Virus record (IMG/VR): IMGVR_UViG_3300009636_000024
Location: 1-32,129 of that record
Length of the DNA stretch: 32,129 nucleotides
Source: a virus
Reading direction: 5' to 3' (one strand)
Part shown: piece by piece, positions 6,326-31,856 of the stretch
How positions within the stretch are numbered: the first letter of the stretch is position 1
Layout of the letters: every line of letters starts with the position of its first letter
Notes under the pieces: generated by a model
The model's input: the letters and a program-made list of their open reading frames with translations, nothing else
Database searches by the model: none
What the model was told of the DNA's origin: nothing
Translations under genes and position numbers: made by a program

Positions 6326-6978
6326 TGCCGCTTGTCACTCTCGGGGCCTTGAAAGCACGGGTTTATTCCAGGCTGGATGGCAACACATTACTTTACCAGC
6401 CGTCCGAAGTGGCTAGTGCGCTTAACGAAGCGGTCCAGGTCGTCAACCTCTCCACGGGGTTCATCCAAGGCACATTCCAGATTCCAGGGTGGTCTCAGGC
6501 CAACCGAATCTGGTACGACACCCCCGCTCAGATCCTCATTCCCCTGCGCGTCACCTTTGAGGGTATGTACCTTCAACCGACGACGCTTTGGCAATTGGGC
6601 GCTTCTTATCCCAATTGGACGGCAGACACAACCAGCAGTGTGGGGCTTCCTGTTTCCTATTGGGTCCCGTGTGGTCTGACGAAGTTCGGGATCTACCCCG
6701 CTGATTCCCTTGGTGGCTGTGACATCAGGGTAACTGGAGTGATGGAGCCAGTCCCATTGGTGGCCGATACGGACATCCTTAATCTCCCCAACGAGTACGC
6801 CAGCGCCGTTGATTTTCTGGCGGCACATACTCTCATGCTGAAGGAATCTTCGACTATCTTTGCCCACGGATCGACGGACTATCAGAAGTACCTGTCCGTC
6901 AACAAGAAGATGACAATATGGAAGGGGCTGACGCAACCGCGCTACTTTATCCCAGAGGCGCAGCAGGCGAAAACATGA
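6325..6978 (+). CDS. Adaptor-like neck protein 2 (217 aa)
   Basis: Length and layout match the podoviral head-tail adaptor family: an N-terminal helix with ALNEAVQVVNLSTGF, a beta-rich middle, and a terminal helical part with KFGIYPADSLGGCDIRVTG followed by LPNEYASAVDFLAAHTLMLKE. In known phages such proteins form a dodecameric ring under the portal. Of the three adaptor-like genes in this window it is the most compact. The GTG start overlaps the previous stop (TAGTG) and is preceded by AAGGTG. Its own stop overlaps the lysozyme start (ATGA). A -1 frameshift at 6310 could add the upstream 96-aa protein to its N-terminus. Confidence 0.6.
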   Translation: MPLVTLGALKARVYSRLDGNTLLYQPSEVASALNEAVQVVNLSTGFIQGTFQIPGWSQANRIWYDTPAQILIPLRVTFEGMYLQPTTLWQLGASYPNWTADTTSSVGLPVSYWVPCGLTKFGIYPADSLGGCDIRVTGVMEPVPLVADTDILNLPNEYASAVDFLAAHTLMLKESSTIFAHGSTDYQKYLSVNKKMTIWKGLTQPRYFIPEAQQAKT

Positions 6979-7496
6979 CCGACGAATTCAAGGCAAAACT
7001 GATCGACATGCTCTCTACCCACGAGGGTCGCAAGGCTTGGATGTATCCCGATACAGCGGGGAACGTGACCGTGGGGGTTGGGCACCTTATTTTTTCGTCC
7101 AGCGCTGCAACACAGTTAGGGTTTACCGACGTAAATCTCGACACAGCATCAGAGGAGGATGTTGTCAACGGATGGAATTTCGTCAAGTCCAGCAACCAGG
7201 AATACAAGTCCCTGATATTAGCAGACAGCGCAATTGACAATCTCCTGATGGGAGACGTTTCTCACTTCTACCTTGTCTTGATCCAGACTTTCCCGGCGTT
7301 TGAATCGTATCCCGAGCCAGCGCAATTGGGCCTCTACGACATGGTATTCAACCTGGGGAGCTTTCGAGCTTTCCCACGATTTGGGGCGGCTGTTCTAAAC
7401 CGGAATTGGGCATCGGCGGCAGCGGAATGCCAACGCGAGGGCATTGGAGCCGCCCGCAATCAGGATACAAAGAATCAGTTTTTGGAGTGCGCATGA
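6975..7496 (+). CDS. T4-type lysozyme (GH24 muramidase), 173 aa
   Basis: This enzyme hydrolyses the N-acetylmuramic acid to N-acetylglucosamine bond of peptidoglycan. The catalytic arrangement of T4 lysozyme (Glu-x8-Asp-x5-Thr) is fully present as Glu17, Asp26 and Thr32, within HEGRKAWMYPDTAGNVTVG and followed by GVGHL. The C-terminal MVFNLGSFRAFPRF segment is also typical of the family. No signal peptide or SAR anchor is visible, so release would need a holin, or the enzyme may be carried in the virion. The start at ATG 6975 is chosen because it overlaps the upstream stop (ATGA) and gives the usual family length. Both ends overlap tail or neck genes by four bases, an unusual site for a lysis endolysin. 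The 14-bp palindromic repeat occurs inside it at 7275. Confidence 0.9.
   Translation: MTDEFKAKLIDMLSTHEGRKAWMYPDTAGNVTVGVGHLIFSSSAATQLGFTDVNLDTASEEDVVNGWNFVKSSNQEYKSLILADSAIDNLLMGDVSHFYLVLIQTFPAFESYPEPAQLGLYDMVFNLGSFRAFPRFGAAVLNRNWASAAAECQREGIGAARNQDTKNQFLECA
7275..7288 (-). repeat. Dispersed 14-bp interrupted palindrome, copy 1
   Basis: On the minus strand it reads GTCTGGATCAAGAC and is antisense to the lysozyme gene. It is identical over 15 bases to the intergenic copy at 29732. It lies inside codons for LVLIQTF, a reading frame unlike that of the copies in the large polyvalent protein. Confidence 0.7.
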
Positions 7497-17748: not shown

Positions 17749-18531
17749 ATGGGCGGCGACCAAGGACAAGGCCAGCAGAATCAGATCACCCAGCAGCAAT
17801 TGGGCGTCGAACAACAGTACCTCGGGATGGCGCAGAACCAGCTTGCCCAAGAGCAAACATTGACGGCCCCGCAAAAGACGTACAATACCGGAGTCATCAA
17901 TGCGGCTGAAAGCGGCAACTATTCTAACCTGATCTCTGCCGCAGGCCCCGCCACTGGAACCATCGCTCAAACCGAGAAGCAGGCGCAAGAGCAAATCATG
18001 AATTCAGTCCCCGCAGGGCCGGGAAGAGATTATGCTCTCGCTGCCTCCAAGCAGGGCGAAGCAACGCAGATGTCCACCACGCTCAACCAGCTTTTCCAAA
18101 ATGCGCTTCAGTCCAATACCAATATCGGGTTGGCATCAGCGGGTATCGGTCTTCAGGAAACTGGCGCATCTTTGAACGCTGGAGGGCTTGCGAGCCAAAG
18201 CAACCAAGCCGTGATGAGCGCCAACGAGCAGGGCAAGGCCAGCACCATGGGCATGATCGGCGCAATTGCGGGCGGCGCGGGTATGGCTATTGGCGGAAGG
18301 CCCTGCTGGATTGCCGAAGCTCTCTATGGGGTGGATGATTCTCGTGTCCATCTTATTCGGGCATGGTTGGTTGGCCCATTCTCTGAAACCGCCATTGGCC
18401 GGATTGTCGTTTCTATTTACCGAGCGATTGGTCGTCAAGTGGCATGGGGTGTGCGACGGTCCAGTTTCCTTCGGGCTATTTTCAAACCGCTTTTCGACCA
18501 AGCACTTAGACGGGCCATTGCCGCACAGTAG
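17749..18531 (+). CDS. Putative small ejection protein (gp14-like position) with CFI-box-type C-terminus (260 aa)
   Basis: The first 60 residues are Gln-rich and helical, the middle is Ala/Ser/Gln-rich, and a Gly-rich hydrophobic stretch (MGMIGAIAGGAGMAIGG, about residues 167-183) could enter a membrane. Right after it comes CWIAEALYGVDDSRVHLIRAW (Cys186 onward). This resembles the C-terminal 'CFI-box' motif (Cys-Phe-Ile-Ala-x-Ala-x-Tyr-Gly) found at the end of unrelated bacterial proteins and in some phage virion proteins. T7 gp14 is similarly short and enters the outer membrane during DNA ejection, and gene order supports the parallel. AAAGGAG lies 11 bases before the ATG. The 14-aa extension after the motif is basic (ending RRAIAAQ). 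The function of the CFI box is unknown to me. Confidence 0.5.
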   Translation: MGGDQGQGQQNQITQQQLGVEQQYLGMAQNQLAQEQTLTAPQKTYNTGVINAAESGNYSNLISAAGPATGTIAQTEKQAQEQIMNSVPAGPGRDYALAASKQGEATQMSTTLNQLFQNALQSNTNIGLASAGIGLQETGASLNAGGLASQSNQAVMSANEQGKASTMGMIGAIAGGAGMAIGGRPCWIAEALYGVDDSRVHLIRAWLVGPFSETAIGRIVVSIYRAIGRQVAWGVRRSSFLRAIFKPLFDQALRRAIAAQ

Positions 18532-18543: not shown

Positions 18544-20385
18544 TTGTCTACTACTCCCATCACCACGAGTCCACCTCCCGAAACTGCTCAGACGACGGCT
18601 ACGACGGCCAATCCCGCAGCCGGGCCGTTCAGTTCATTCCTAGACCCGTCTCAAGTCGCGCCTTCTACCTATCAGGCTTCCCAGCAACGCCCTAGCGGTT
18701 ATATGGGGAAGCTGGGCAAGGGGGCGATGATAATTGACAAGTTCCTTGAAGGAATGTCCAAGGGCCGGGCAATGCAATATGCCAAGTCGCGGCAGAAAGA
18801 AGCGGATATTTATAACCGGATTGGGCAGACAGAGGAGTACGTCCGTAAATCTGACATTGACCCAGCTTTGCAGAAGCAGCAAATTGACAAACTAGAGGCC
18901 TTGAGGCTTGGGATATTGAGGGATCAGACTAGCCCCGACGCGGCGGGCGGAGGCGGAGATTCTGGGCAGGGCGGCAAGAAGAAGGGGAAAAAGGACGATC
19001 AAGATCAAAGCCCCATCGTGAAGTTTTTCCATCAGGCCGCAACCAACATGCTTGGTCCCGGTGCTCAGGCGTCGTCTTTCGACGAGAAGACCGTAAGGGC
19101 AACGCTGGGCGACGTGTCGCATGACGTGAGGATGGCGCAGTCGCAAACGGCACAGATTGCTCAATTCGGATCAATTGCTATAAACAAGATAAGTAAAGGG
19201 TTGTCGGACGGCACTATTAAGAGCAGGGCGGATATTTTCAAAGATCCAGAACTTGCTCAAATCATGAATGCTTTAGGGAAAACCCCAACCGACAAATTAC
19301 CTTCTGGTTTAGTTGAAATAATCAAATCCATCCCAGAGAAGGCCGAAACAGCTAAAGTCACCGACTATGGCACAGCCGAAGTGGACGGGAAACAAATCAA
19401 TGTCGTTAGGACAGACAAAGGATTAGAGGATGGGAAGGGGAATCCCGTTTCTCTTGACACCATCAAGCCGGGAAGCCTTCGCATGGGCAATGAATCCGCC
19501 CCGAAGCCCCCCACAGAGAAGCAGGTTGAGCTTGACCGCGCCTATGCGTCTTGGTCTAAGACACTGGGCAAGGATAAACTGGACGACGGCGAAAAGAGCA
19601 TCGTTGCAAAACTGGAGAGGAACCCCGACAACCCTCTCAGTATTTCCGTCCAGGCCATTCTCAACAAACAGCCGAAGGGCGCTAAGAATCTTCAGGGCGC
19701 TTACGATGCCGCCATTAACCTGAGCGATAGGGAGAGGCAGACCAAGATTGCAGAATCCGCTTCTAATGCCAGCCTCAATGCGGCATTAAAGAAACTGACG
19801 CTTGACGACAAAAAGGACAAGTACAATCCCAGGGAACTGGACGATGTTTCCAGGTCTATCGTCAACGACGTTCACGGAGATGGGACGCCTGCATCTGAAG
19901 CGGAAATTGCTCGGCTCAGAAAGTCAGCGAGTGATCCGAAAGACCCCAAGCGTACCGAGAGTGCGGATGCTCTTAGGAAATGGGCTGTTGGCAATGTCAG
20001 GGATCACCCAGAGTTCTATCAACACCTAACTGACCAACAGCGCGAACAAGTCATCCATCACATCGACGGGATGCCGGTGGATAAGATGGTGGGCAGGGGC
20101 GGGAGCGCGGCTGCCGCTACGACGTTTAACGACCCATCTAAGGCGAAGGCGGATGCGTCTAAGTCCAACGGCGCGGCTGGCGCAATGAGAAGGACCGATG
20201 CAGTTCCAGAAACCAAGGCTGAGAAAACCGCTTCCAATGTTCCACCAGGGGCTATTATTCCCAAGGCCACTAAGCCTGTCACCACTGAATCACAATTACG
20301 AGCGGATGCAAAAGCCAAGGGGATGCAGACCGCAGCAATTGATGCTATGGTGAAGCACTATAAAGATTTAGGGTATGTTAGGTAG
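18544..20385 (+). CDS. Putative internal virion/ejection protein (gp15-like position), 613 aa
   Basis: The protein is hydrophilic, Lys/Asp/Ala-rich and predicted almost wholly helical, without signal peptide, membrane helix or Cys. It has a low-complexity Gly/Lys stretch (about residues 136-155), a small beta element (TDYGTAEVDGKQINVVRTDKG, about residues 277-297) and a C-terminal helix resembling a packing motif (AAIDAMVKHYKDLGYVR). I do not recognise a named domain. Placed between a gp14-like and a giant gp16-like gene, it fits the middle ejection protein, which in T7 forms the periplasmic tunnel. The TTG start is set by a near-perfect AGGAGGG seven bases upstream. It ends nine bases before the next gene. 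Confidence 0.5.
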   Translation: MSTTPITTSPPPETAQTTATTANPAAGPFSSFLDPSQVAPSTYQASQQRPSGYMGKLGKGAMIIDKFLEGMSKGRAMQYAKSRQKEADIYNRIGQTEEYVRKSDIDPALQKQQIDKLEALRLGILRDQTSPDAAGGGGDSGQGGKKKGKKDDQDQSPIVKFFHQAATNMLGPGAQASSFDEKTVRATLGDVSHDVRMAQSQTAQIAQFGSIAINKISKGLSDGTIKSRADIFKDPELAQIMNALGKTPTDKLPSGLVEIIKSIPEKAETAKVTDYGTAEVDGKQINVVRTDKGLEDGKGNPVSLDTIKPGSLRMGNESAPKPPTEKQVELDRAYASWSKTLGKDKLDDGEKSIVAKLERNPDNPLSISVQAILNKQPKGAKNLQGAYDAAINLSDRERQTKIAESASNASLNAALKKLTLDDKKDKYNPRELDDVSRSIVNDVHGDGTPASEAEIARLRKSASDPKDPKRTESADALRKWAVGNVRDHPEFYQHLTDQQREQVIHHIDGMPVDKMVGRGGSAAAATTFNDPSKAKADASKSNGAAGAMRRTDAVPETKAEKTASNVPPGAIIPKATKPVTTESQLRADAKAKGMQTAAIDAMVKHYKDLGYVR

Positions 20386-20394
20386 CAGAAGCCA

Positions 20395-23300
20395 ATGGCA
20401 ACCCCGCCGAATTCGACTGCGGACCTGATTAGCCTGTGGCAAGGACAGCCGCAACCACATTCTACGCCTAAATCCAGCAAGTCGGAGCTATCTACTCCTA
20501 AGACTACAGCAGATCTGATTGGTTTGTGGAGTCAGGCTCAGCCCACTACCGCGCAGCCAACCACCCCTCCGCCAGTCCCAGGGATGGGCGCTTTAGGCCC
20601 TCCTCCGCCTGTCGCCGCGCCAAAGGTCAACGTGCAGCCGCAGGGTGGTCTGGGGATGCGAGCCTATGGGATAGCAAACCAGTTCGCCGAGCAGGCGCAG
20701 ACTGGCTTACCACAAACATTAACCGGCAAATCCCTAGCCCAAAGAACGGAAGAGGCTAATCAAAACCAAGTCATTACTATCCCGAACCCTAGTGGTGCGC
20801 CTTATATTCTGCCTCCAGGGACATGGGGCCACGATTTTGTTTCTAAAATGCGCGAAAAAGGCGCTGGTTTAGCCGACTTTATGATGTCGCCGTTAGGTGT
20901 GACAAGTCTTATAGGCCCAGCCGCCGCAGGGGGAAAGGCGCTTATTTCGCGACTTGTTAGCGGCGCGTATGCAGTCCAGATGGTCCCAAGTGCCATAGAG
21001 AAGACCGCTAAGGCTATCAAGAACCCAACTGGGGCCAATGTTGCCGATGCGATTGGCGATGCTCTTATGGCTGGCCCGTTAGCAGCGCATACGGTCATGC
21101 CTGAAGGGGCCACAGCCACAGGAGAGCCACCCACCAAGAGCGAGGCGGTTAAAGAAGCCGTAGGAGAAGCCGCTGCCCCTCCGCCCGATACCCTTCGCAG
21201 AGAACAGGTCGAAGTCGGCAAACTGAAGCAGGAAGATGCTCAGGCCAAAATCTTGGCCCGCAAAGAGGAATTGGCTCGTCAGAAAACGCAAGCCCCTGCT
21301 GTTACGGCTGCGCCGCCTGGAGAGGCCCCTGTTGAGCCGCCCAAAGAATCTGTGCCCGTAACGCCAAAGAAAGGAGGTCCTCCTAGTGCTCAGCAAGTTG
21401 CTCAACCGGAGCAAAGGGAGGTGATCCAGCCGTCTAGCGCGGAGGCCCCTGCCCCGAAGACAGAGGCGGGGGCTACTGCGCCTACGGCGGATCTCAAGCC
21501 GGGGCAAGTGTGGAACCTGAACGGCGGTCTCTACTCCGTCACGGGCATCGAGGCCGACGATTCCGGCAAGCCTATCGTCAAATACGACTTCACCGGGCCG
21601 AAGGGGAACAAGAACCCCAACCAGAAGATCCCACATGCGGCGTTTACCAGCATGATGTCGAAGGGCAAGCTCCAGGGTGCGGCAGAGGGCACTGCTGCGC
21701 CGCCAGCGGCGGCGGAGCCTCCGGTCAAGGCGGAAGCGGCCAAGCCCGTAGCGAAGCCGCCAGCGGCCACTACGTTCTATCGAGGGACGGTCCCCGGATC
21801 TACGGAAAGGATAAAAGAACCATTTGAAGCCGCTAAGGGGAAAACCTTCGTAGCCCGCAAGCCTGAATCGGCCCGTAACTACGGGAGCGAGATTGAAGAA
21901 GTTAAGGCCAAGCCTGGAGCCAAAATACTTTATGAGGGGACTCCTGAGTTTGGGAAAATATGGGGCCACAAGAAGTATGACCCAGAGTTAGACTTCACCA
22001 ACCAAACCAAGAAGGGAGAGAACCAAACCGGCGTTGTAAACGAGATGGTTCGCAAGGCGCAATCGGCGGGGTACGACCTTATTTCTTTCAAGCGAGATTC
22101 GGACATCGGCTCAATCATATTGAACGAGGATGCCTTTATAAGAGGCCGCAAGCCGACCGAGCCGCCAGCGGCCAAGGCAGAGCCAATTAAGCCGCCTCTC
22201 AAGCCGAAGCCTGCGCCGAAGCCCGCTGAGTCTGTATCCAGACAAACCCCGCCCGCTGCTGCGGCTAAAGCCGCAGAGCCGCCCGCACCGAAGATTGACC
22301 CTGAAGAACTCCCGGCGATGAAGAGGCTGAGAGCGGCAGGGCAAGCCATCTCCGACACGGAACTGACGCAGCTTCAACTACCCAAAGCCAAAGTGATACT
22401 GGCGAAGCTCAAGCAAGTAGGGGAAGCCGCATTGGCGGAAGCCGACAAACAGGCCGATCCCAATGCAGCGGCAGAGCTAAGAAGGGTAGCGGCAGAGACG
22501 GACAAGCGTGCGGATGCCATTAGAAACAGAGCAAAGGTGCTGGAGCAAGAGCAGGCGGCGAAGGCCGCGCCGAAGGCGACACCAGCGCCGCCTACTACAC
22601 AAAACGCTCCCTCAAATGAGGCGAAAAAACAGGAAGTAGCCGCACCTCCGCCAGAAGCGAAGCCCGCGCAACCTATTGAGCCGCCAGCGGCTAAAGCGGC
22701 TGAAGCGACAAAACCTGCTCAAATTATTCCAGAAAATATTCCGCCTGTGCCTGCGGTGGATACTGCCGCAATCAAGCGCACAACCCCGGCTCTCAAAACT
22801 CCTGAGAGAGATAAACTCGAAGCCGACTACGAGGCGCGTAAGCAAGAGAGCGAAGCGCTGTGGGAACAGGTCGGTGATCTTGAGAAACAACGCAATGCTG
22901 CTAAGCCCTACAGTAAGAAGAGGGAAGCTCTTGAATCTAAGATTGAAAAGCTCAAAGACAAACGTGGGAAAATTGATGCGGAGTATGAGCCACTACGGAA
23001 GCAGAGCTACCAAGCCGAACTAGAAGACGCTGCATCGCAGACCGAAAATGAAATTGCTAGGATCACTGCTGAGCGTAAGATTGAAGAGATGCGCCTTCAG
23101 GACGAAACGAAGGCTGGTAAGTTCAATAATGAAGAGTCTCTGAAATTCCAGAGGGGATGGAAAGCGGCGCACCAAGCTATCGTTGATGAACTAAGGAAGA
23201 AAGCACCAGAGGTTGATTCTAGGGAAGATAAATACGAATCCCTAAAGAAGCAGTTGGCGTCTCTTTCTCCAGAAGAAAACGCTAGGGCAATAGAGGACGC

Positions 23301-26300
23301 TCTTGATAGGCTAGCTAGGGACTTTATTGACCATCCGCTTTTGGCAACTGACGACATAGGGAAGCGACTGGAGGGCTTCCTTTACGGCTCCAGAAATAGG
23401 GTCATAGCGGAGAAGGTCAAGACCTATGGGGAAGCCAAGCTGAACGAGATTGAAGCCCGCTACATGAAGGCGGCTGGCAACGCCCCTCCGAAGTCGTGGG
23501 AATTCGCAGATGCCCGAAGGAAGGTGGAAGAGGCCCCAAGCATCGAGGCTGCCGATAAAGCTCTAGAGAACATTACCGCTCTCACCGATGGATTGATCGA
23601 ACAGAAGCGCCTGCAAGAAAAAACAGCCAAGCGAGAGACTAGAGATTTTTCTAAGTCCTTTCGCCCATTGTCAGGGATGCGCTCTCCGGCTATCACAGAA
23701 ACGGACGCCTGGAAGGGGAACGTAACAGAAGGGGATCTTGCCTTCGATGGTAAGAGCGTTATCGACACTAGCGCTATTAAGGATAAGTCTAGGGCGGAAG
23801 GAGTCAAAGCTCCATCTAAGGTCCAGTTTGAGAGGTATCCGAAAGAAAACGCCGCTAAGTCTTGGGGGAATATCAAGAAGGCAGCTACCACAAGTTTAGA
23901 GGAAATCGGTCACGCCGAACAAAAGGGAATTGATTACGCCGTCTATGCAATGCCCGATGGCTCCGCGATTGTCCTCAGCGCTAAACAGGTCCGGTTGATA
24001 AAAAGTCTGACTGGATTTGACGAAGCGCGTGGAAGCGGGATAGACAAGCCAGTTGTTTTCTACAAGAAGGGCAACGCGGTTGCAGCCACAATGCCATACA
24101 TAAACGCTGCAACCGTCGATCTCGACGTGGCTCGGAAAGCAGCCAAGGGAGCAAATACCCCACCTCCTCCTGGGGCCGAAACTGCTTCTGCGGAGCCTCC
24201 CGCAGCGGCAGAAGCCGCAGAACCGCCGCAGGCGGCAGCAGTGCCGGAGTCTGCATCCAGACAGACGGCTCCCCCTCCTGGGGCTCCTGCGCCGAAGACG
24301 CCCCCAGGCGGGGAGAAGCCCACTCTCGGGGGTAACGTCCTTGAACGCTTGGTTGATGCAGGCCGCGAAAGCGACAAGTGGCTCCGAGAAAATGGGATCA
24401 TCGGCGGGGGATCGCTTTCGGCTAACCGCGCTCTCGACCCGCAAGCTGTCTACCACCTCACGCGATCAATAGCGGGCGATGTTGCCAGGGGTGTTATCTC
24501 TCTACAGGACGCTGCCGCTAAAACCCTGAAAACGCTGCGAGAAAAGTTTGAGATTGGAGCATTGTCGGCGCGCGATATTGAGGGGAAAATCCAGGAGCAT
24601 ATTGACAAAGCATCGGCGCTTTCTCAAATAACTGAAAAGATAGGGAATAAGCAGATCAGCCCAGCTTCTCCGTACTTGTCCAGAACAAAGGCGAATGTCC
24701 GAGAGTCTTGGAGGCCGCTAGGCGAAAACGTAGCAAAGGCATGGGAAGCTACGCGGGCCGCTCCTAAGCGTCTCTGGGAAGCATATGAGAAACTAGCGCC
24801 ATGGACAAGCTTTAAGGATACTGTCGGTCGTTATGACGGGCAGTTGCAGTTCGGCTCTTGGGAGATGAAAAAGTTCCGAGACACGATCAGAACTGCAATC
24901 CCAGATAAGCTCAGGCGTGAAGCCATCACCAATTATGTGCAAGCCAATGGGGATATGTCCGTCCTGGAGCAGCGGGCTAAATCTTCATCTTCGGCTCATC
25001 GTCCAGGCTATAACACTGCGCTGACACTCAACCCTGCTGAAATAGAGATCGCCAAGAATGTTCGGATCTATTTTGACCAGAAGCTCGACGAGGCCCATAA
25101 CGCAGGGATGCTAAAGGATGGTGTTGAGAATTACGTGAACCAGATATGGGACCGTGATCCAGACAACCCCGCAGCCAAGAACCTTATTGCCGCCGCCGCT
25201 TTTCATGAACTCCAACCGAATCCAGCCTTCCTTAAGAAAAGGATTTTCGAGAGCTATTTTGAGGGTGAGCAGGCAGGATATAGGCCACGCGACAAAGACA
25301 TTGGTGCTCTGATTGCCGCTTACGATCAGAGCTTCAATACGGCGGTAGCCTCTCGTGCGTTCATCCGAAACCTGCATGACGGCGTGGCGTCTGACGGACG
25401 ACCTATTGTGGAGATTGCGGGAACTGGGAGGAAAGCCGAGCCCACTCCAGGAGAAGTTCAGATCTATATCAAGCCGAAGGTAAGGCCAGAAAATACTATT
25501 GACTATAAACCAGTAGACCATCCCGCCCTGCGGGGATGGAAGTGGGCAAGCTCCGACGAAAAAGGCAACCCCATTTTTGTTCAAGGAGACTTCCTGGTGC
25601 ATCCCGAGTATGCGCAGAAGCTCAAGAACATCTTGGGGCATAGCGCCGTTCGTAACTATGCTGTGGGACGAGCCGCCTTAGCCTTGTCTAATGGATTCAA
25701 ACAGACGTTACTAACGCTCTCACCATTTCACCAAGTTCAGATTGGAGTCCACGCGCTAGAGCATACTGTCAGCCCCGTCAATGTTCCTAAATTGGATCTT
25801 AATAATCCAACGCAGCGGGCGCTTGTTAATCACGGTCTGATGGTAGCTGAATTTCGAGGAATGGATGAGTTTGCGGAAGGAGTCTCGGGGACGGGGCTTC
25901 TCAAATTGGTGCCGGTCTTGGGGCAAAAGATGGAAGAGTATCAAGACTATCTCTTCCGCGAGTACATCCCGCGCATAAAGATGTCGATGGCCCAAGAGGC
26001 GCTGGAACGCAACCGTGGCAGATACGCAGGGAAACTGTCGGAAGACCAAATCCTAGCATTAACCGCGAACCAAGCAAATGCGGCATTCGGGCATCTCAGC
26101 TATAAGTTACTGGCGCGTAATCCTACTTTCCAAGACGTCTTCCGTCTTTTAGCCCTAGCCCCTGATTTCCTAGAGGCTCGTTCCCGCTTTGTTGCACAGG
26201 CGGCTAAGCCTTATGGCCGCGAACAGTTACGAGCCTTAGCTTTAGGTGCTGCCGCAATGACGGCGGGGAAATTCGTCATCGGGCAAGTGGCAGGCGAAAA

Positions 26301-27084
26301 GCAAGACTGGAGCCTTAACCATTTGTTTTATGTCCGCCTCGGAGGGCGCGAATATGGGCTGCGAACGATCCAAGGGGATCTGGCCCACATGCTAAGCGAT
26401 CCGCGCAGTTTCATTAGTAACCGTCTCAACCCAGCGGTTACCAAGCCCGTAATGGAGGGAATAACTGGACGCGATCAGTTTGGAAGAAGGCGTAGCGCCA
26501 TCAAACAATTCCAGGATTATTTCAAGACCGCCGTGCCAATCCCATTTAAGGGGTTGTTGCCAGATCAGCCGCAGGACTTAATCAGTACATTCCTGCAATC
26601 TACAGGTGTTCAGAGCCGCCAATACACCAGCAAAGCGCAGCAGGTGATTAAGGATTACTACGGTGATAACCCATTGTACGAGCCCACAGAGAGGACCAAA
26701 GCGGCAAAGCAGATAGTAGACGCCGCTCGATCTGGTGATATGGCTAAGGCGCAAAAAATAGGAGAACAGGCAATCAAGGCTGGGGTATTACAAGAGAAGG
26801 ACGTAGGCCACGCGATTGAGAAGGGGCGAAAGGGACCTCTGGCCGCTGGGGTTAAGTATGTCCCATGGACGACAGCGATTAAGGTTTATGAGGCGGCGAC
26901 TGACGAAGAGAGGCAGCAGATTGGCGAGGTTGTTGCCAAGAAGCTAGAGAACGCTTACAAGAAAGACCCCGCAAGTTTTACTCCTGAAGTTTGGAAGAAA
27001 CTGACGGAGTTGGGATTCATTGGCGCTGAATCACCAACGTCGGAACAGCGAACCGCTCCCCCTCCAGGGGCAGAGAGGATGTAG
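20395..27084 (+). CDS. Giant polyvalent ejection-type protein with candidate ADP-ribosyltransferase domain (2229 aa)
   Basis: This is the largest gene and sits where T7 has gp16. Two N-terminal short repeats (TADLISLWQGQPQP and TADLIGLWSQAQPT, residues 9-22 and 38-51) are followed by helical and Pro/Ala/Lys linker regions. A small beta module lies at about 368-420. A candidate ADP-ribosyltransferase fold spans 459-582, with Arg463 (FYRG), FVARKPESARNYG at 485-497, a GYDLISFK segment and Glu578. Charged coiled coils follow at about 800-1090. An unassigned alpha/beta domain (1096-1244) ends with VVFYKKGNAVAATMP. About 900 helical residues follow, with a hydrophobic stretch near 1943-1966. Large polyvalent proteins of phages commonly combine such domains and are injected with DNA. 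No peptidoglycan hydrolase domain was recognised. The ATG has only a weak Shine-Dalgarno (AGAAG). Confidence 0.55.
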   Translation: MATPPNSTADLISLWQGQPQPHSTPKSSKSELSTPKTTADLIGLWSQAQPTTAQPTTPPPVPGMGALGPPPPVAAPKVNVQPQGGLGMRAYGIANQFAEQAQTGLPQTLTGKSLAQRTEEANQNQVITIPNPSGAPYILPPGTWGHDFVSKMREKGAGLADFMMSPLGVTSLIGPAAAGGKALISRLVSGAYAVQMVPSAIEKTAKAIKNPTGANVADAIGDALMAGPLAAHTVMPEGATATGEPPTKSEAVKEAVGEAAAPPPDTLRREQVEVGKLKQEDAQAKILARKEELARQKTQAPAVTAAPPGEAPVEPPKESVPVTPKKGGPPSAQQVAQPEQREVIQPSSAEAPAPKTEAGATAPTADLKPGQVWNLNGGLYSVTGIEADDSGKPIVKYDFTGPKGNKNPNQKIPHAAFTSMMSKGKLQGAAEGTAAPPAAAEPPVKAEAAKPVAKPPAATTFYRGTVPGSTERIKEPFEAAKGKTFVARKPESARNYGSEIEEVKAKPGAKILYEGTPEFGKIWGHKKYDPELDFTNQTKKGENQTGVVNEMVRKAQSAGYDLISFKRDSDIGSIILNEDAFIRGRKPTEPPAAKAEPIKPPLKPKPAPKPAESVSRQTPPAAAAKAAEPPAPKIDPEELPAMKRLRAAGQAISDTELTQLQLPKAKVILAKLKQVGEAALAEADKQADPNAAAELRRVAAETDKRADAIRNRAKVLEQEQAAKAAPKATPAPPTTQNAPSNEAKKQEVAAPPPEAKPAQPIEPPAAKAAEATKPAQIIPENIPPVPAVDTAAIKRTTPALKTPERDKLEADYEARKQESEALWEQVGDLEKQRNAAKPYSKKREALESKIEKLKDKRGKIDAEYEPLRKQSYQAELEDAASQTENEIARITAERKIEEMRLQDETKAGKFNNEESLKFQRGWKAAHQAIVDELRKKAPEVDSREDKYESLKKQLASLSPEENARAIEDALDRLARDFIDHPLLATDDIGKRLEGFLYGSRNRVIAEKVKTYGEAKLNEIEARYMKAAGNAPPKSWEFADARRKVEEAPSIEAADKALENITALTDGLIEQKRLQEKTAKRETRDFSKSFRPLSGMRSPAITETDAWKGNVTEGDLAFDGKSVIDTSAIKDKSRAEGVKAPSKVQFERYPKENAAKSWGNIKKAATTSLEEIGHAEQKGIDYAVYAMPDGSAIVLSAKQVRLIKSLTGFDEARGSGIDKPVVFYKKGNAVAATMPYINAATVDLDVARKAAKGANTPPPPGAETASAEPPAAAEAAEPPQAAAVPESASRQTAPPPGAPAPKTPPGGEKPTLGGNVLERLVDAGRESDKWLRENGIIGGGSLSANRALDPQAVYHLTRSIAGDVARGVISLQDAAAKTLKTLREKFEIGALSARDIEGKIQEHIDKASALSQITEKIGNKQISPASPYLSRTKANVRESWRPLGENVAKAWEATRAAPKRLWEAYEKLAPWTSFKDTVGRYDGQLQFGSWEMKKFRDTIRTAIPDKLRREAITNYVQANGDMSVLEQRAKSSSSAHRPGYNTALTLNPAEIEIAKNVRIYFDQKLDEAHNAGMLKDGVENYVNQIWDRDPDNPAAKNLIAAAAFHELQPNPAFLKKRIFESYFEGEQAGYRPRDKDIGALIAAYDQSFNTAVASRAFIRNLHDGVASDGRPIVEIAGTGRKAEPTPGEVQIYIKPKVRPENTIDYKPVDHPALRGWKWASSDEKGNPIFVQGDFLVHPEYAQKLKNILGHSAVRNYAVGRAALALSNGFKQTLLTLSPFHQVQIGVHALEHTVSPVNVPKLDLNNPTQRALVNHGLMVAEFRGMDEFAEGVSGTGLLKLVPVLGQKMEEYQDYLFREYIPRIKMSMAQEALERNRGRYAGKLSEDQILALTANQANAAFGHLSYKLLARNPTFQDVFRLLALAPDFLEARSRFVAQAAKPYGREQLRALALGAAAMTAGKFVIGQVAGEKQDWSLNHLFYVRLGGREYGLRTIQGDLAHMLSDPRSFISNRLNPAVTKPVMEGITGRDQFGRRRSAIKQFQDYFKTAVPIPFKGLLPDQPQDLISTFLQSTGVQSRQYTSKAQQVIKDYYGDNPLYEPTERTKAAKQIVDAARSGDMAKAQKIGEQAIKAGVLQEKDVGHAIEKGRKGPLAAGVKYVPWTTAIKVYEAATDEERQQIGEVVAKKLENAYKKDPASFTPEVWKKLTELGFIGAESPTSEQRTAPPPGAERM
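21699..22691 (+). repeat. Four dispersed GCCGCCAGCGGC units in linker codons
   Basis: The 12-mer GCCGCCAGCGGC, itself an inverted repeat (GCCGC-CA-GCGGC), occurs exactly at 21699-21710, 21756-21767, 22161-22172 and 22680-22691. It encodes Pro-Pro-Ala-Ala-type linkers between domains of the giant protein. Codon reuse in duplicated linkers explains it most simply. Confidence 0.7.
22230..22243 (-). repeat. Dispersed 14-bp interrupted palindrome, copy 2
   Basis: On the minus strand it reads GTCTGGATACAGAC. The sense strand encodes ESVSRQ (residues 612-617 of the giant protein) in the linker just after the ADP-ribosyltransferase-like domain. Confidence 0.7.
24249..24262 (-). repeat. Dispersed 14-bp interrupted palindrome, copy 3
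   Basis: On the minus strand it reads GTCTGGATGCAGAC, identical to copies at 27974 and 30679. The sense strand encodes ESASRQ (residues 1285-1290 of the giant protein). The identity with the 30679 copy extends to 20 bases (24244-24263 against the reverse complement of 30678-30697). Confidence 0.75.
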
Positions 27085-27961: not shown

Positions 27962-28607
27962 CTGGGGCCTCTTGTCTGGATGCAGACTTTAGCAAAAAGC
28001 AGAAGTACACATCTGGGCCAGCGGGCACGTCTACGCGGCAGTCGAATGGGTCTACGATCTCTAACCCTGCCTTCAGAAACAGCCCACGCCACCCCTCTTG
28101 GCCGAAACAGGAATAGTGGTTAGCGTTTCGGAAATGCTCACTAGGCGTGCTAGGGCTGGGGACTTCCACATAAAGGAACCCGTCAGGGGTAAGCTGATCT
28201 CTTAGGGCTTCCAGGAGGAAGAGGGGGATGGGGGAGTGCTCGACGATGTGCCGAGCCCAGACCAAACTGAATATCCCTTTGGGCCAGAGGGCGATCTCGT
28301 GCATGTCGGCTTGCTGGAAACAAAACTGCGTTCCTGCCGCCCACAGATCGTCCGGTACGTCCTCCAGGCGGGACGTAACCCCCTTATAGGTTTTGTACCC
28401 AGCTTCTCCAAACATCTTTAAGGCAAACCCATCCGCACAGCCTACGTCCAGAACCTTTACACGCTTTTCTGGGGGAATGGACTTGAGCACTCGCTGAAAG
28501 ACTTGCTGAGAGATTGAGGCATGAAAGGCAAGGTTGTCGGGAGGTTCGGCGTAAGCCGTAGCGCCACAGCGAAGGACGAATTCAGCGAGTTTGGAAGCAA
28601 GGTCCAT
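27948..28607 (-). CDS. Class I SAM-dependent methyltransferase (219 aa)
   Basis: Motif I (VKVLDVGCADG, residues about 50-60), a later acidic strand (QQADMHEIALWP) and SLVWARHIVEHSPIPLFLLEA, followed by LTPDGFLYVEVP, fit the methyltransferase 11/23-type Rossmann fold. It transfers a methyl group from S-adenosylmethionine; the substrate is unknown, but two glycosyltransferases in the same operon suggest a sugar or modified base. No (D/N)PPY DNA amino-methylase motif or Cys-containing C5 motif was seen. The start at ATG 28607 shares one base with the preceding stop (TGATG); an in-frame start 15 codons earlier is less likely. Its C-terminal KSASRQEAP resembles the SRQ linkers of the giant protein because of the shared 14-bp repeat. 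Confidence 0.8.
   Translation of the reverse strand: MDLASKLAEFVLRCGATAYAEPPDNLAFHASISQQVFQRVLKSIPPEKRVKVLDVGCADGFALKMFGEAGYKTYKGVTSRLEDVPDDLWAAGTQFCFQQADMHEIALWPKGIFSLVWARHIVEHSPIPLFLLEALRDQLTPDGFLYVEVPSPSTPSEHFRNANHYSCFGQEGWRGLFLKAGLEIVDPFDCRVDVPAGPDVYFCFLLKSASRQEAPDAST
27974..27987 (+). repeat. Dispersed 14-bp interrupted palindrome, copy 4
   Basis: On the plus strand it reads GTCTGGATGCAGAC. It lies in the last codons of the methyltransferase (SASRQ) and 12 bases upstream of the start codon of the two-helix membrane protein. Confidence 0.75.
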
Positions 28608-29704
28608 CACGCCTCGCAGACGGCCAGCAAATCCTTCGCGCATCGCTCCCAAGTCAAATTGGCCTTGATGAACTCCATCCCCTTGCGACCCATAATCTCC
28701 CTGTCGATGGGGCCAAGCTTGTAAGCCTGTTCGACAGCATCGACCACTTCTTCCAACTCCGGCTCAACCCAGCCATTCTCGACCGTAGGCCCGCCGATGC
28801 AAATGGCGTGATCCTCCAGGACTACATCCGAGTGCCCTGTCCCATTGGTAGCGACGATGGGGATACCGCAGGCCATAGCCTCACACATAGGCATGTTGTT
28901 CCCGGCTTCTCCTCTGTTGGGGAACAGCCCAATGTGCGCCTGCCGGTAAACCTGCGGCATCTTCCAGTTGGGCACCATGTCCACCAGCGTATAGCGGTCG
29001 GAGGAAATGCCATTGATGGTCAGGTTGGCTTGGATGCGATCCTTCCAGGTAGCGCCCATCGTTGGGATGTAGCGGATGTGCTTAGAAGCGCAGAGCGAAT
29101 TCATGGTTTCCAGCCACAGGTTACCCCACGCTGCGATCAGGTGCATGTCGGGGTACTTCTGGGAAAGGATCTTGTAGGCCGCGATTACGATGTCCGTCCC
29201 CTTGCGATGTTCGGCCTTGCCGCCGCTGAAGATGTAGAACTTGCCGTCGTTCTTCGGCCCTTCCCCTTCCTTGGGGGCAAACACGTCCGTATCAACCCCT
29301 TGGATGGCAACGGTCGGATGCAGCCCAAGCTCTTCCAGCTTCTCTTTGCACCATGTAGAGCCTGCGACGAGATGCTGATAGTAGCGGTCAACGTGGGGCA
29401 CGTTGCGTTTCGCTTGGTCAGGAAACTCCGTATAGACCCAGCCCACATTGCGCTTCCAGGACCAAGCGTTAGGGTTCACCGGCATGAAAGATACACCGCC
29501 CGTCGCCAGATGCAGCATAGGGTCGTCAGACGCATAGGGCACGTCAGGGCTGAACTCTGGCGGGCAATACTTCTCCATGGGATGTCCTGGAGGCACCTTA
29601 GCCAACATACGGATGTCCGTGAGGGAGGCCATCGTGGGGACGAGGTTGTGCCCCATAATCCCTGCGCCCCACGAGTCCCCAACTACCAAAGAAAGGTTAA
29701 TCAT
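28607..29704 (-). CDS. GT-B family (GT4-like) glycosyltransferase (365 aa)
   Basis: The C-terminal half carries the GT4 pattern: FYIFSGGKAEHRKGTDIVIAA (about residues 156-176), then FPNRGEAGNNMPMCEAMACG, with Glu266 and Glu275 where retaining GT4 enzymes bind the nucleotide sugar, then GIPIVATNGTGHSDVV. The N-terminal Rossmann half begins MINLSLVVGDSWGAGI. It would transfer a sugar from an NDP-sugar to an unknown acceptor such as phage DNA, a virion protein or a host glycan. AGAGGA lies six bases before the ATG. It follows a 75-base gap that holds the 14-bp palindrome and is directly coupled to the methyltransferase by TGATG. Confidence 0.8.
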   Translation of the reverse strand: MINLSLVVGDSWGAGIMGHNLVPTMASLTDIRMLAKVPPGHPMEKYCPPEFSPDVPYASDDPMLHLATGGVSFMPVNPNAWSWKRNVGWVYTEFPDQAKRNVPHVDRYYQHLVAGSTWCKEKLEELGLHPTVAIQGVDTDVFAPKEGEGPKNDGKFYIFSGGKAEHRKGTDIVIAAYKILSQKYPDMHLIAAWGNLWLETMNSLCASKHIRYIPTMGATWKDRIQANLTINGISSDRYTLVDMVPNWKMPQVYRQAHIGLFPNRGEAGNNMPMCEAMACGIPIVATNGTGHSDVVLEDHAICIGGPTVENGWVEPELEEVVDAVEQAYKLGPIDREIMGRKGMEFIKANLTWERCAKDLLAVCEA

Positions 29705-29779: not shown

Positions 29780-30028
29780 CTAGCTTCTCCAAGAGGGCTG
29801 AGTGGGATCGACTGGCGGCTTTTCATTGATGGCAATACTAGCATTGGCCCATTGCACGCACTTCTGAAGATCTGTTAAGGCTAGGGACTTCTCCCGCGAC
29901 TCGGGGCAAGCTCCGTTTAACAGGAGAGCAAACTTCTTAGCGGCCTCGCGGATTCTGCCGTACCTCTCCGCTTGATCCCCGACTGGGGCATGGTACGTGA
30001 AAATATCCTCAATCTGTTCTTTCGTCAC
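29780..30028 (-). CDS. Small protein resembling the Acb2/Tad1 hairpin family (82 aa)
   Basis: The sequence shows the pattern of a widespread small phage family: FTYHAPVGDQAERYGRIREAAKK (residues about 10-32), CPESREKSL (41-49), LTDLQKCVQW and ANASIAIN (61-68). From memory, proteins of this pattern are grouped with the Acb2/Tad1 hairpin domain. Acb2 and Tad1 are phage proteins that sequester cyclic nucleotides or cyclic-ADP-ribose variants and so block CBASS or Thoeris defence. The predicted two-helix hairpin and small size fit, but the ligand is not established. The GTG start overlaps the upstream stop by four bases and has AAGGAA before it. The alternative is an unrelated two-helix phage protein. 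Confidence 0.5.
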   Translation of the reverse strand: MTKEQIEDIFTYHAPVGDQAERYGRIREAAKKFALLLNGACPESREKSLALTDLQKCVQWANASIAINEKPPVDPTQPSWRS

Positions 30029-31365
30029 AAGTATTCCTTCTTTCTCAATGCTTCCTTAACCGCTTCCACCACGGGAGTCCAGTCTCCCAACTTCGTCTGC
30101 CGAAAGATCCGCATCGACCTGTACCACTCTGTCGTATCCCTCGTCATCCCCCAGCGCCAATCTACAATGAGCGGCATGAGCAGATAGCAGGGCACGCCCA
30201 GAGTCCCTGCCAGATGCGCGATGGCCGTGTCCACGGTGATAACCAGATCGAGCCGCTGGATGGCTTCTATCGTAGCAAACCAGTTGGGGAATTCGAGCGT
30301 GAAGTCAAACGCCGCTTTCTCTTCCGGCGAAGCGCCAAATTGCAGGCAGACCGAAGCCGGATCATCGAATAGCGACTTGTCCATCAGTTGCCGCATTACG
30401 TCGAAACTCATAGAGCGGAAACGGTCGTGCGAGTGATTGGCGTTCCCCTTCCAGCAGTACCCAATCCGGCCCTTTACTCTATTAGAAACAGGCGGCAGGG
30501 GATTCTCTTCTGGGATGAGGAAGGGCAGCTTCCGGTCATTCAAGTAACGGAGTGTGGACATCAGAGGGAATTGACAATCCGTAACTGGAATTCGGCCCAT
30601 TGCCGGGTGGCACACTTCAACCCCAAACAGCCGCGCATAATCAGCGATTGTGTCGTCGCACCAGCAGTACCAAGTTGTGTCTGGATGCAGACTCCGGAGC
30701 ACCTTGAAGTAGCGGGCAAACTGGAAGGCGTCCCCAGCCCCTTGCTCTCCGACAATAAGCACTTTCTTCCCACCCAGCGTAGCCCCAGCCACATGCTCGT
30801 AGTGCGGTGTGGGGACAGGCACCCACGGGTTCAGAGTCTTCAGGCGAGCCTCGTAGAATTGCAAGCCTCTGTCCCATTGCCTATCGAGCATGAGCATCAT
30901 GCCAAGGCTCTGCTCTCCTACGGCATTACCAGGGGAAGCGGACAAGGCCGTTTCGTACTCGCTGATCGCGGCTTTGATGTTGCCGCGATACTGCGAGTTC
31001 ATTGCAATTGCAGCGAAGCACTCGAAAGGAAACTGTGCGTTAAGCTCCAAAGACCTAATTAGGTGCTCCCGTGACTCGTCAAGCCTGAGACACACCTGAA
31101 GGGCAACGCCATAGTTGAGGTGCATCGCGGCGTTGTCAGGGGCGATCTTCAGCCCCTCTTCCAATGGGCCAAGCGCCTTCTCCGGCGTCTTCATGTTGAT
31201 GAAGGCGGCTCCCTCGTTCGAGTATGCGTCGGGACAGTGTGGCGAAATCTCAGCCGCCTTCCGAAAGAAAGCGACCGCTTTGTCGGCAGCTTTCTCAGAG
31301 CCCATCATAAATGCTCCAAGCTTGAGGAGGTCGGTTTCTGTCAGGTTAGCGTCGATCTGAATCAT
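30025..31365 (-). CDS. TPR protein fused to a GT9/GT41-like glycosyltransferase domain (446 aa)
   Basis: Residues about 15-185 contain TPR-type repeats (for example AVAFFRKAAEISPHCPDAYSN and ALGPLEEGLKIAPDNAAMHL). From about 205 the sequence changes to a GT-B-like domain with KKVLIVGEQGAGDAFQFARY, GRIGYCWKGNANHSHDRFRS and LVITVDTAIAHLAGTLGVP, as in heptosyltransferase (GT9)-like domains that follow TPRs in many bacterial and phage proteins. The acceptor is unknown; TPRs usually bind a protein partner or acceptor. ATG 31365 overlaps the resolvase stop (ATGA); a longer start at 31413 is unlikely. Copy 6 of the palindrome lies in codons for SLHPDT, in a different frame from the SRQ copies. Confidence 0.75.
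   Translation of the reverse strand: MIQIDANLTETDLLKLGAFMMGSEKAADKAVAFFRKAAEISPHCPDAYSNEGAAFINMKTPEKALGPLEEGLKIAPDNAAMHLNYGVALQVCLRLDESREHLIRSLELNAQFPFECFAAIAMNSQYRGNIKAAISEYETALSASPGNAVGEQSLGMMLMLDRQWDRGLQFYEARLKTLNPWVPVPTPHYEHVAGATLGGKKVLIVGEQGAGDAFQFARYFKVLRSLHPDTTWYCWCDDTIADYARLFGVEVCHPAMGRIPVTDCQFPLMSTLRYLNDRKLPFLIPEENPLPPVSNRVKGRIGYCWKGNANHSHDRFRSMSFDVMRQLMDKSLFDDPASVCLQFGASPEEKAAFDFTLEFPNWFATIEAIQRLDLVITVDTAIAHLAGTLGVPCYLLMPLIVDWRWGMTRDTTEWYRSMRIFRQTKLGDWTPVVEAVKEALRKKEYL
30679..30692 (+). repeat. Dispersed 14-bp interrupted palindrome, copy 6
   Basis: On the plus strand it reads GTCTGGATGCAGAC, inside the TPR-glycosyltransferase gene. The 20 bases 30678-30697 are the exact reverse complement of 24244-24263, although the two genes translate them in different frames (SLHPD against ESASRQ). 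Confidence 0.75.
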
Positions 31366-31856
31366 TTGAGTACTGTCTCGGCAGCGGTGATGGCGACGGC
31401 CAAGGCTGACCACGTATCGGCAGCGAACCCATGCAAGGGGCCGTAGCCGGTCTTCTTCGTCCCGATAGCCTTATCCTTGCCGCCGTAGCGGTCAATGAGG
31501 GCCTGTCTGATGTTGGCGTCTTTGGCTTTCGTGCTTCCGCAGAAATGGATTTTCACGGCTTTGCGAGGAATCCTCACCACGGAGTCGAGGCCGAAGCACT
31601 GAGCGAAGATGCCGCTCCAGTAGACTGTCTCAAACACTTCAGCGCCTACGGCCATGCCGTAGCTGGCTATCTGTTCAATCGCGCAGTAATCGAAATACTG
31701 CACGCCCACGCCGACCAATTCTCCGTCAAGGTCAATCTGTTCCAGGAGAGCCTTGTTTTTGATCTTTCCCCAGTTGAGAGGCTTCCGGTTCTCGGAATCG
31801 TATGAGACCCAAGCTGATTCTTCGCAACCAGGGTCGATAGCTAGGATTGTAGGCAT
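31362..31856 (-). CDS. RuvC-like Holliday junction resolvase (164 aa)
   Basis: The protein has the RuvC-type RNase H fold signature: ILAIDPG with Asp8, YCAIEQI with Glu61, and HGFAADTWSALAVA with Asp147, giving the acidic residues that hold metal ions. Such phage enzymes cut branched DNA before packaging or during recombination. Length is close to RuvC (about 173 aa). The fourth catalytic acidic residue usually found three positions from the last Asp is not obvious. ATG 31856 shares one base with the stop of the 54-aa gene (TGATG); the GTG one codon earlier is an alternative. It heads a coupled set with the TPR-glycosyltransferase (ATGA). Confidence 0.8.
   Translation of the reverse strand: MPTILAIDPGCEESAWVSYDSENRKPLNWGKIKNKALLEQIDLDGELVGVGVQYFDYCAIEQIASYGMAVGAEVFETVYWSGIFAQCFGLDSVVRIPRKAVKIHFCGSTKAKDANIRQALIDRYGGKDKAIGTKKTGYGPLHGFAADTWSALAVAITAAETVLK

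What the first reader, a model, noticed from the sequence alone, without database searches (positions are those of the whole stretch)
20395..27084. A giant putatively injected protein carries a candidate ADP-ribosyltransferase domain
Residues 459-582 show an ART-like order (FYRG, FVARKPESARNYG, GYDLISFK, ILNEDAFI) inside a 2229-aa protein at the T7 gp16 position. Phage T4 delivers the Alt ADP-ribosyltransferase from the virion, and large polyvalent proteins of phages are known to carry toxin-like domains. An ejection protein that also modifies host targets on entry would be notable.
Basis: partly seen in the sequence, partly recalled or inferred. Interest (0 to 1): 0.62.

Follow-up and report, generated by a model that had tools for sequence, protein, structure and literature searches.

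The report
ART-like domain in phage ejection protein
A giant phage protein that is probably injected into the bacterium with the viral DNA carries a small domain that folds like the enzymes that attach ADP-ribose to proteins; it belongs to an unnamed, mobile subfamily in which arginine replaces the usual histidine, within an already described class of injected phage proteins.

Summary
The ORF (20395-27084, 2229 aa) and the four motifs are real. Alone, the domain (residues ~455-590) matches no ART profile beyond chance. Homologues settled the fold. Five strong relatives (phmmer 5e-42 to 1e-20) in unrelated large phage proteins, plus a distant one (L081), gave a 7-row alignment with no Pfam ART-PolyVal member in it. 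AlphaFold2 with it rose from pLDDT 40 to 81, and Foldseek's top PDB hits are AcrIF11, a phage ADP-ribosyltransferase, then a cyanophage A4 pre-ejectosome chain, then RES toxins. Named viral hits are largely PolyVal ARTs. Profile comparison links the subfamily to PF18760, and three relatives sharing the window protein's C-terminal core carry true PF18760 domains. So the ART idea is supported. The subfamily has invariant Arg where described H-Y-D polyvalent ARTs have His. Virion packaging is inferred from gene order and family; catalysis is untested. The concept, ART cargo in injected polyvalent proteins, was published in 2017; the unnamed R-type subfamily is the new part.

The parts
20395..27084 (+). 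2229-aa giant ORF, putative ejected polyvalent protein
   Evidence: C-terminal core shared with about 100 viral loci
21757..22164 (+). ART-like domain, residues 455-590 (folded construct)
   Evidence: AF2 pLDDT 80.6, pTM 0.76 with a 7-row alignment; Foldseek top hits; homologues
21781..21783 (+). codon of Arg463, strand 1, invariant; His in PF18760
21847..21849 (+). codon of Phe485, strand 2, invariant; at the Tyr position of H-Y-D ARTs
21880..21885 (+). codons of Tyr496-Gly497, invariant, after the helix that follows strand 2
21895..21897 (+). codon of Glu501, invariant, strand 3
22069..22077 (+). codons of Gly559-Tyr560-Asp561, invariant; Asp561 opens strand 5, likely catalytic acid
   Evidence: PMC5512222
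21487..21669 (+). residues 365-425, small domain with a sub-threshold KOW-like match (EFP_N, E 0.056)
24790..26628 (+). residues ~1466-2078, conserved C-terminal core of the family (LAPDFLEAR block)
18544..20385 (+). 613-aa ORF immediately upstream, at the T7 gp15-like position (position only)
   Evidence: same tight arrangement in relatives
17749..18531 (+). 260-aa ORF at the T7 gp14-like position (position only)

Best explanation
The ORF encodes a very large virion protein of the ejection or 'polyvalent' type: a conserved ~600-aa C-terminal core that goes with the internal-protein cassette, and a long variable N-terminal half in which small effector domains are swapped between phages. Residues ~455-590 are one such effector, an NAD-dependent ADP-ribosyltransferase-fold domain of an undescribed subfamily (R463-F485-D561 in place of H-Y-D). 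The protein is packaged in the capsid, enters the cell with the DNA, and this domain modifies a host (probably defence or transcription) protein in the first minutes, like T4 Alt in delivery and like AcrIF11 in fold. Shown here: the domain, its homologues, the predicted ART fold, the modular exchange. Inferred: packaging, injection, catalysis, target.
For: Fold: AF2 of the window domain with 7 sequences, none a Pfam-defined ART-PolyVal member, gives pLDDT 80.6, pTM 0.76, against 39.6 without alignment. PDB Foldseek: rank 1 6kyf (AcrIF11, prob 1.00, E 1e-3), rank 2 9k3a_B (cyanophage A4 pre-ejectosome, prob 0.99), then MbcT and RES toxins; tankyrase, PARP14, PARP4 and KptA lower. BFVD: 11 hits at E <= 0.001, among them a PARP-domain, a PolyVal ART and an ART-PolyVal-like protein. 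Sequence bridge: window to L081 (33% identity); L081 to PF18760 as its only Pfam hit at E <= 10 (0.043; 6.5e-4 per record); window+L081 against an ART-PolyVal profile beats all 500 shuffles, and the six rows without L081 beat all 400. Modularity: same domain in L132, L138, L154, L168, L135, in which the core was not found; L132's 3251-aa protein also holds two PF18760 domains; core-sharing L092, L094, L095 carry PF18760 above cut-off. Invariance of R463, F485, E501 and GYD561 at 31-55% identity argues for a kept function. Context: a 200-816-aa ORF lies directly upstream of the core ORF in nearly all relatives; one member carries an SLT lysozyme domain.
Against: No curated profile recognises the window domain itself. 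TM-scores to solved structures are modest (0.43-0.53 among the leaders). The strand-1 His of described polyvalent ARTs is Arg, and the strand-2 Tyr is Phe. NAD binding was not modelled and model coordinates could not be inspected. Packaging rests on gene position; neighbours of the window have no recognisable homologues.
Confidence: 0.66

Rival explanations
1. The domain has an ART fold but consumes NAD (glycohydrolase or phosphorylase, like the RES toxins MbcT and ParT) instead of modifying a protein; on injection it would deplete NAD or counter NAD-based defence.
For: Foldseek ranks 3-7 are RES-type NAD-degrading toxins (6fkg, 6gw6, 9r35) at TMq 0.43-0.53; Arg instead of His in strand 1.
Against: RES profile PF08808 finds nothing in any of the seven records carrying the domain; the sequence bridge goes to ART-PolyVal.
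Confidence: 0.17
2. Catalytically dead ART-like domain kept as a binding or packing module in the capsid or ejection channel.
For: H to R and Y to F at two of three positions of the described polyvalent ART active site; no enzyme assay.
Against: R463, F485, E501 and D561 are invariant across seven sequences at 31-55% identity to the window, unlike decaying sites; Arg in strand 1 is what active R-S-E ARTs use (R-S-E in PMC5512222).
Confidence: 0.17
3. The protein is not a virion component; it is a large cytoplasmic phage protein, so the domain acts after expression.
For: No direct proteomics; window neighbours lack homologues.
Against: Conserved arrangement with tightly coupled upstream ORFs in relatives, SLT cargo in one member, general virion context of polyvalent proteins (PMC5512222), structural match to a chain of the solved cyanophage A4 pre-ejectosome.
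Confidence: 0.15
4. The motifs are a chance resemblance and the region is not ART-like.
For: No Pfam hit for the window domain; window alone is not significant against the ART profile (19/500 shuffles).
Against: Homologue-based fold and Foldseek results, profile-profile tests.
Confidence: 0.05

Closest known systems
ART-PolyVal (Pfam PF18760; Tox-ART-HYD2-related ARTs of polyvalent proteins, PMC5512222)
   Same: Order of motifs; GYD with Asp at the start of strand 5; aromatic in strand 2; cargo domain of giant phage proteins; coexists with two PF18760 domains in one 3251-aa protein (L132 record); L081 is a sub-threshold intermediate
   Different: Arg instead of invariant His in strand 1; conserved YG..IE and AKIL blocks; the profile does not find the window domain
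AcrIF11 (6KYF), phage/plasmid ADP-ribosyltransferase that modifies Csy1 (PMC12421852)
   Same: Top solved-structure match, similar size; Asp115 of AcrIF11 is needed for activity
   Different: Stand-alone protein; AcrIF11Pae2 relies on His20/Tyr46; about 12% identity; target unknown here
Cyanopodophage A4 pre-ejectosome (9k3a_B; Hou et al. 2025, cited in PMC12810830)
   Same: Second structure match, a large protein inside a podovirus head; A-4L ORF27 has an ART-PolyVal-like stretch at residue 1424
   Different: No sequence similarity to the window protein; that chain B is ORF27 is inferred; ORF27 has YHG, not YRG
T4 Alt
   Same: ART delivered with the DNA from the virion
   Different: R-S-E (Alt/VIP2) clade, not inside a polyvalent protein
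T7 gp16
   Same: Position as the last and largest gene of an internal-protein cassette; one family member carries an SLT lysozyme domain like gp16
   Different: No sequence relation found; the window protein has no SLT hit; variable effector cargo

Membership tests
ART superfamily (fold) | ART fold | tested here: met
   predicted, not solved: AF2 pLDDT 80.6 with a 7-row alignment; Foldseek top ranks ART-superfamily in PDB and BFVD
ART superfamily (fold) | NAD binding and ADP-ribose transfer | not testable with these tools
   needs protein and assay
ART-PolyVal PF18760 | Pfam profile at or above gathering score | tested here: not met
   window none; L081 15 bits against 31.2
ART-PolyVal PF18760 | His in strand 1 | tested here: not met
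   Arg463, invariant Arg in the subfamily against invariant His
ART-PolyVal PF18760 | Tyr in strand 2 | tested here: inconclusive
   Phe485 invariant; the prototype RPP1 also reads LFFT there
ART-PolyVal PF18760 | Asp in strand 5 | tested here: met
   GYD559-561 invariant, strand 5 begins at 562 in the model
R-S-E ARTs (T4 Alt/VIP2) | Arg in strand 1 | tested here: met
   Arg463
R-S-E ARTs (T4 Alt/VIP2) | ExE catalytic motif | tested here: not met
   DIGS/DIGT before the penultimate strand; Glu578 not conserved
RES NAD-degrading toxins | PF08808 profile | tested here: not met
   no match at E 10 in seven records; control genomes rang
Phage polyvalent proteins | Giant multidomain protein with exchangeable effector domains | tested here: met
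Phage polyvalent proteins | Encoded among virion genes | tested here: inconclusive
   window has tail and endolysin PHROG hits nearby and cassette-like order; no capsid or terminase gene identified
Ejection (internal virion) proteins | Present in virions and ejected | not testable with these tools
   needs proteomics

The most novel reading that the evidence does not exclude
An undescribed R-type subfamily of virion-delivered ARTs, spread as a mobile module among unrelated giant phage proteins, with an Arg-Phe-Asp active site intermediate between the H-Y-D and R-S-E classes and its own host target, delivered as part of the DNA-ejection machine.
Probability: 0.45. Interest if true: 0.68.

Novelty: new variant of a known kind. 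Interest (0 to 1): 0.5.

Why it matters
It adds an unnamed subfamily to the small set of enzymes that phages may deliver with their DNA, shows that one ejection-protein core exchanges such domains freely, and gives small, expressible homologues with which the question of whether ejection proteins also act as host-modifying enzymes can be tested. It also corrects which residues to mutate.

Tried and rejected
Direct Pfam, NCBIfam, PHROG, phage and plasmid searches with the window domain: nothing. Single-sequence AlphaFold2: pLDDT 39.6, not used. Window-only comparison with an ART profile: not beyond chance. Searching 185 and 398 bacterial genomes with PF18760 gave only a few members, and the window+L081 profile gave none in 398. 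Weak phmmer hits L045, L111 and L075 were judged chance. RES membership was rejected at profile level. Sequence search of PDB with the subfamily gave only noise. A motif scan for a CWIA..YG marker upstream in relatives found none. The PNAS paper on A4 is not held. One mistaken call with a placeholder query returned an error and was not used.

Full report
Observation. The window is an IMG/VR virus record of 32129 bases. The ORF 20395-27084 (+) starts with ATG, has 2229 codons and no internal stop. The protein has no usable Pfam, PHROG or NCBIfam match anywhere, and no relative in 50,697 phage records.

What the protein is. Its C-terminal ~600 residues are a conserved core. Starting from it, one scan found 4 relatives, an alignment-based scan 19 loci, and a third 80; some contigs recur among these. 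Three more lie on bacterial MAG contigs. The N-terminal ~1440 residues are Pro/Ala-rich linker with small domains and differ from phage to phage. One relative carries an SLT lysozyme domain and one a MutS_I domain (by their motifs these are L010 and L016). Three carry Pfam ART-PolyVal domains above the curated cut-off: L092 4.6e-11, L094 2.2e-9, L095 3.6e-8. In nearly all relatives an ORF of 200-816 aa abuts the core ORF directly upstream, often with another of about 180-400 aa before it. The window has 613 and 260 aa there. This is the arrangement of a podovirus internal-protein cassette, but only by position: the neighbours have no recognisable homologues.

What the domain is. Alone, residues 455-590 are not significant against ART profiles (19 of 500 shuffles do as well) and AlphaFold2 without an alignment fails. 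Homologues changed this. Searching all ORFs of the core-bearing loci, L081 gave a hit (33% identity, full-sequence E 1.9e-4), better than the best hit of any of 60 shuffled queries, whose best was 0.023 (that control searched a larger ORF set). The blocks shared with L081 (YG..IE and AKI) were used as a DNA pattern over the viral collection and found five strong homologues, L132, L138, L154, L168 and L135 (phmmer domain E 5e-42 to 1e-20). The C-terminal core was not found in their sequenced parts. L154 also has the polyvalent-associated domain LPD23. L132 belongs to a 3251-aa protein that also holds two classic ART-PolyVal domains. So this is a mobile cargo module of polyvalent proteins.

Fold. 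With the seven natural sequences as alignment (A6), AlphaFold2 gives mean pLDDT 80.6 and pTM 0.76. No Pfam-defined ART-PolyVal sequence was in the alignment; one row, L081, is the sub-threshold bridge. Foldseek against PDB: rank 1 is AcrIF11 (6kyf, prob 1.00, E 1.0e-3, TM 0.51), rank 2 a chain of the cyanophage A4 pre-ejectosome (9k3a_B, prob 0.99), ranks 3-7 MbcT and RES-Xre toxins; tankyrase, PARP14, PARP4 and KptA appear lower with weak scores. In the viral library 11 hits reach E <= 0.001; named ones include a PARP catalytic-domain protein, a PolyVal ADP-ribosyltransferase, an ART-PolyVal-like protein and a MuF fusion. Profile comparison with ten phage and prophage ART-PolyVal domains (drawn): window+L081 beats all 500 column shuffles (27.7 against a maximum of 21.4), and the six rows without L081 beat all 400 (24.1 against 22.8), aligning YRGT with YHGT and TFVARKPESARNY with YFT...A..Y. 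L081 hits PF18760 as its only Pfam family (E 0.043).

Active site. The polyvalent ARTs are described as His in strand 1, Tyr in strand 2, Asp in strand 5 (PMC5512222). In alignment A7 of such domains the strand-1 His and the Asp of GxDG are invariant. In the window subfamily the equivalents are Arg463 (invariant), Phe485 (invariant; the prototype from Roseovarius podovirus also reads LFFT there) and Asp561 (invariant, just before strand 5 of the model). Equating the published strand-5 Asp with GxDG is my reading of the alignment. Also invariant: Gly464, Thr465, Ala493, Tyr496, Gly497, Ile500, Glu501, Ala509-Leu512, Phe519, Gly559, Tyr560. AcrIF11, the closest solved structure, needs Asp115 (Pae1) and His20/Tyr46 with Asp146/Glu147 (Pae2) (PMC12421852).

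Mechanism. Most likely the protein is packaged with the internal proteins, enters with the DNA, and the ART-like domain uses NAD to modify a host protein early. Shown: domain, homology, predicted fold, modular exchange. Inferred: packaging, injection, catalysis, target. A RES-like NAD-consuming activity and a dead, binding-only domain remain open.

Precedent and novelty. ARTs as the commonest protein-modifying cargo of virion-associated polyvalent proteins, with T4 Alt as the model, were described in 2017 and surveyed again in 2022 (PMC5512222, PMC9503650). In Anabaena phage A-4L, taken here as the A4 of the solved pre-ejectosome, ORF27 (1717 aa) has an ART-PolyVal-like stretch at residue 1424 (E 3.3e-5 among four proteins); that chain B of 9k3a is this protein is inferred from its length and the motif, and the paper could not be read. 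The concept is therefore not new. New here: an R-type subfamily with no entry in Pfam, NCBIfam or PHROGs, and its recurrence in unrelated giant phage proteins.

Noticed in passing
window 24790-26628 and loci L003-L110: The ~600-aa C-terminal core (ENYVNQIW and LAPDFLEAR blocks) is an uncharacterised family found at about 100 viral loci with no Pfam or PHROG name for the window member.
   Followed up: partly
L016 3466-11259: 2598-aa relative; by motif it holds an M15-like peptidase start, the MutS_I domain reported for one member, and a VYHETS stretch (residues ~1516-1600) that looks like another unrecognised ART-like domain.
   Followed up: no
L174 20116-25269 (-) (Anabaena phage A-4L ORF27): Annotated 'tail protein' has an ART-PolyVal-like stretch at residue 1424 and may be the chain matched in the A4 pre-ejectosome structure.
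   Followed up: partly
L175 1612-11364 (-): 3251-aa phage protein with three ART-like domains (one R-type at residue ~700, two PF18760 at ~1988-2115 and 2184-2344).
   Followed up: partly
window 30025-31413 (-) and 28607-29704 (-): Minus-strand ORFs at the window end: a TPR protein with a weak Glyco_transf_9 match and a protein resembling a glycosyltransferase by eye.
   Followed up: no
window 6918-7496: 192-aa lysozyme-like ORF (PHROG endolysin, E 1.2e-6).
   Followed up: no
L002: A 15-kb IMG/VR contig (3300009618_000135) is identical over residues 1-411 of the giant protein and then ends: probably a fragment of the same phage.
   Followed up: no
L168 2285-6178 (-): Upstream of the R-type domain lies another possible ART-like end (GFDSVAYMHDTPNGPVKHIVMI), suggesting tandem ART-like domains.
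   Followed up: no
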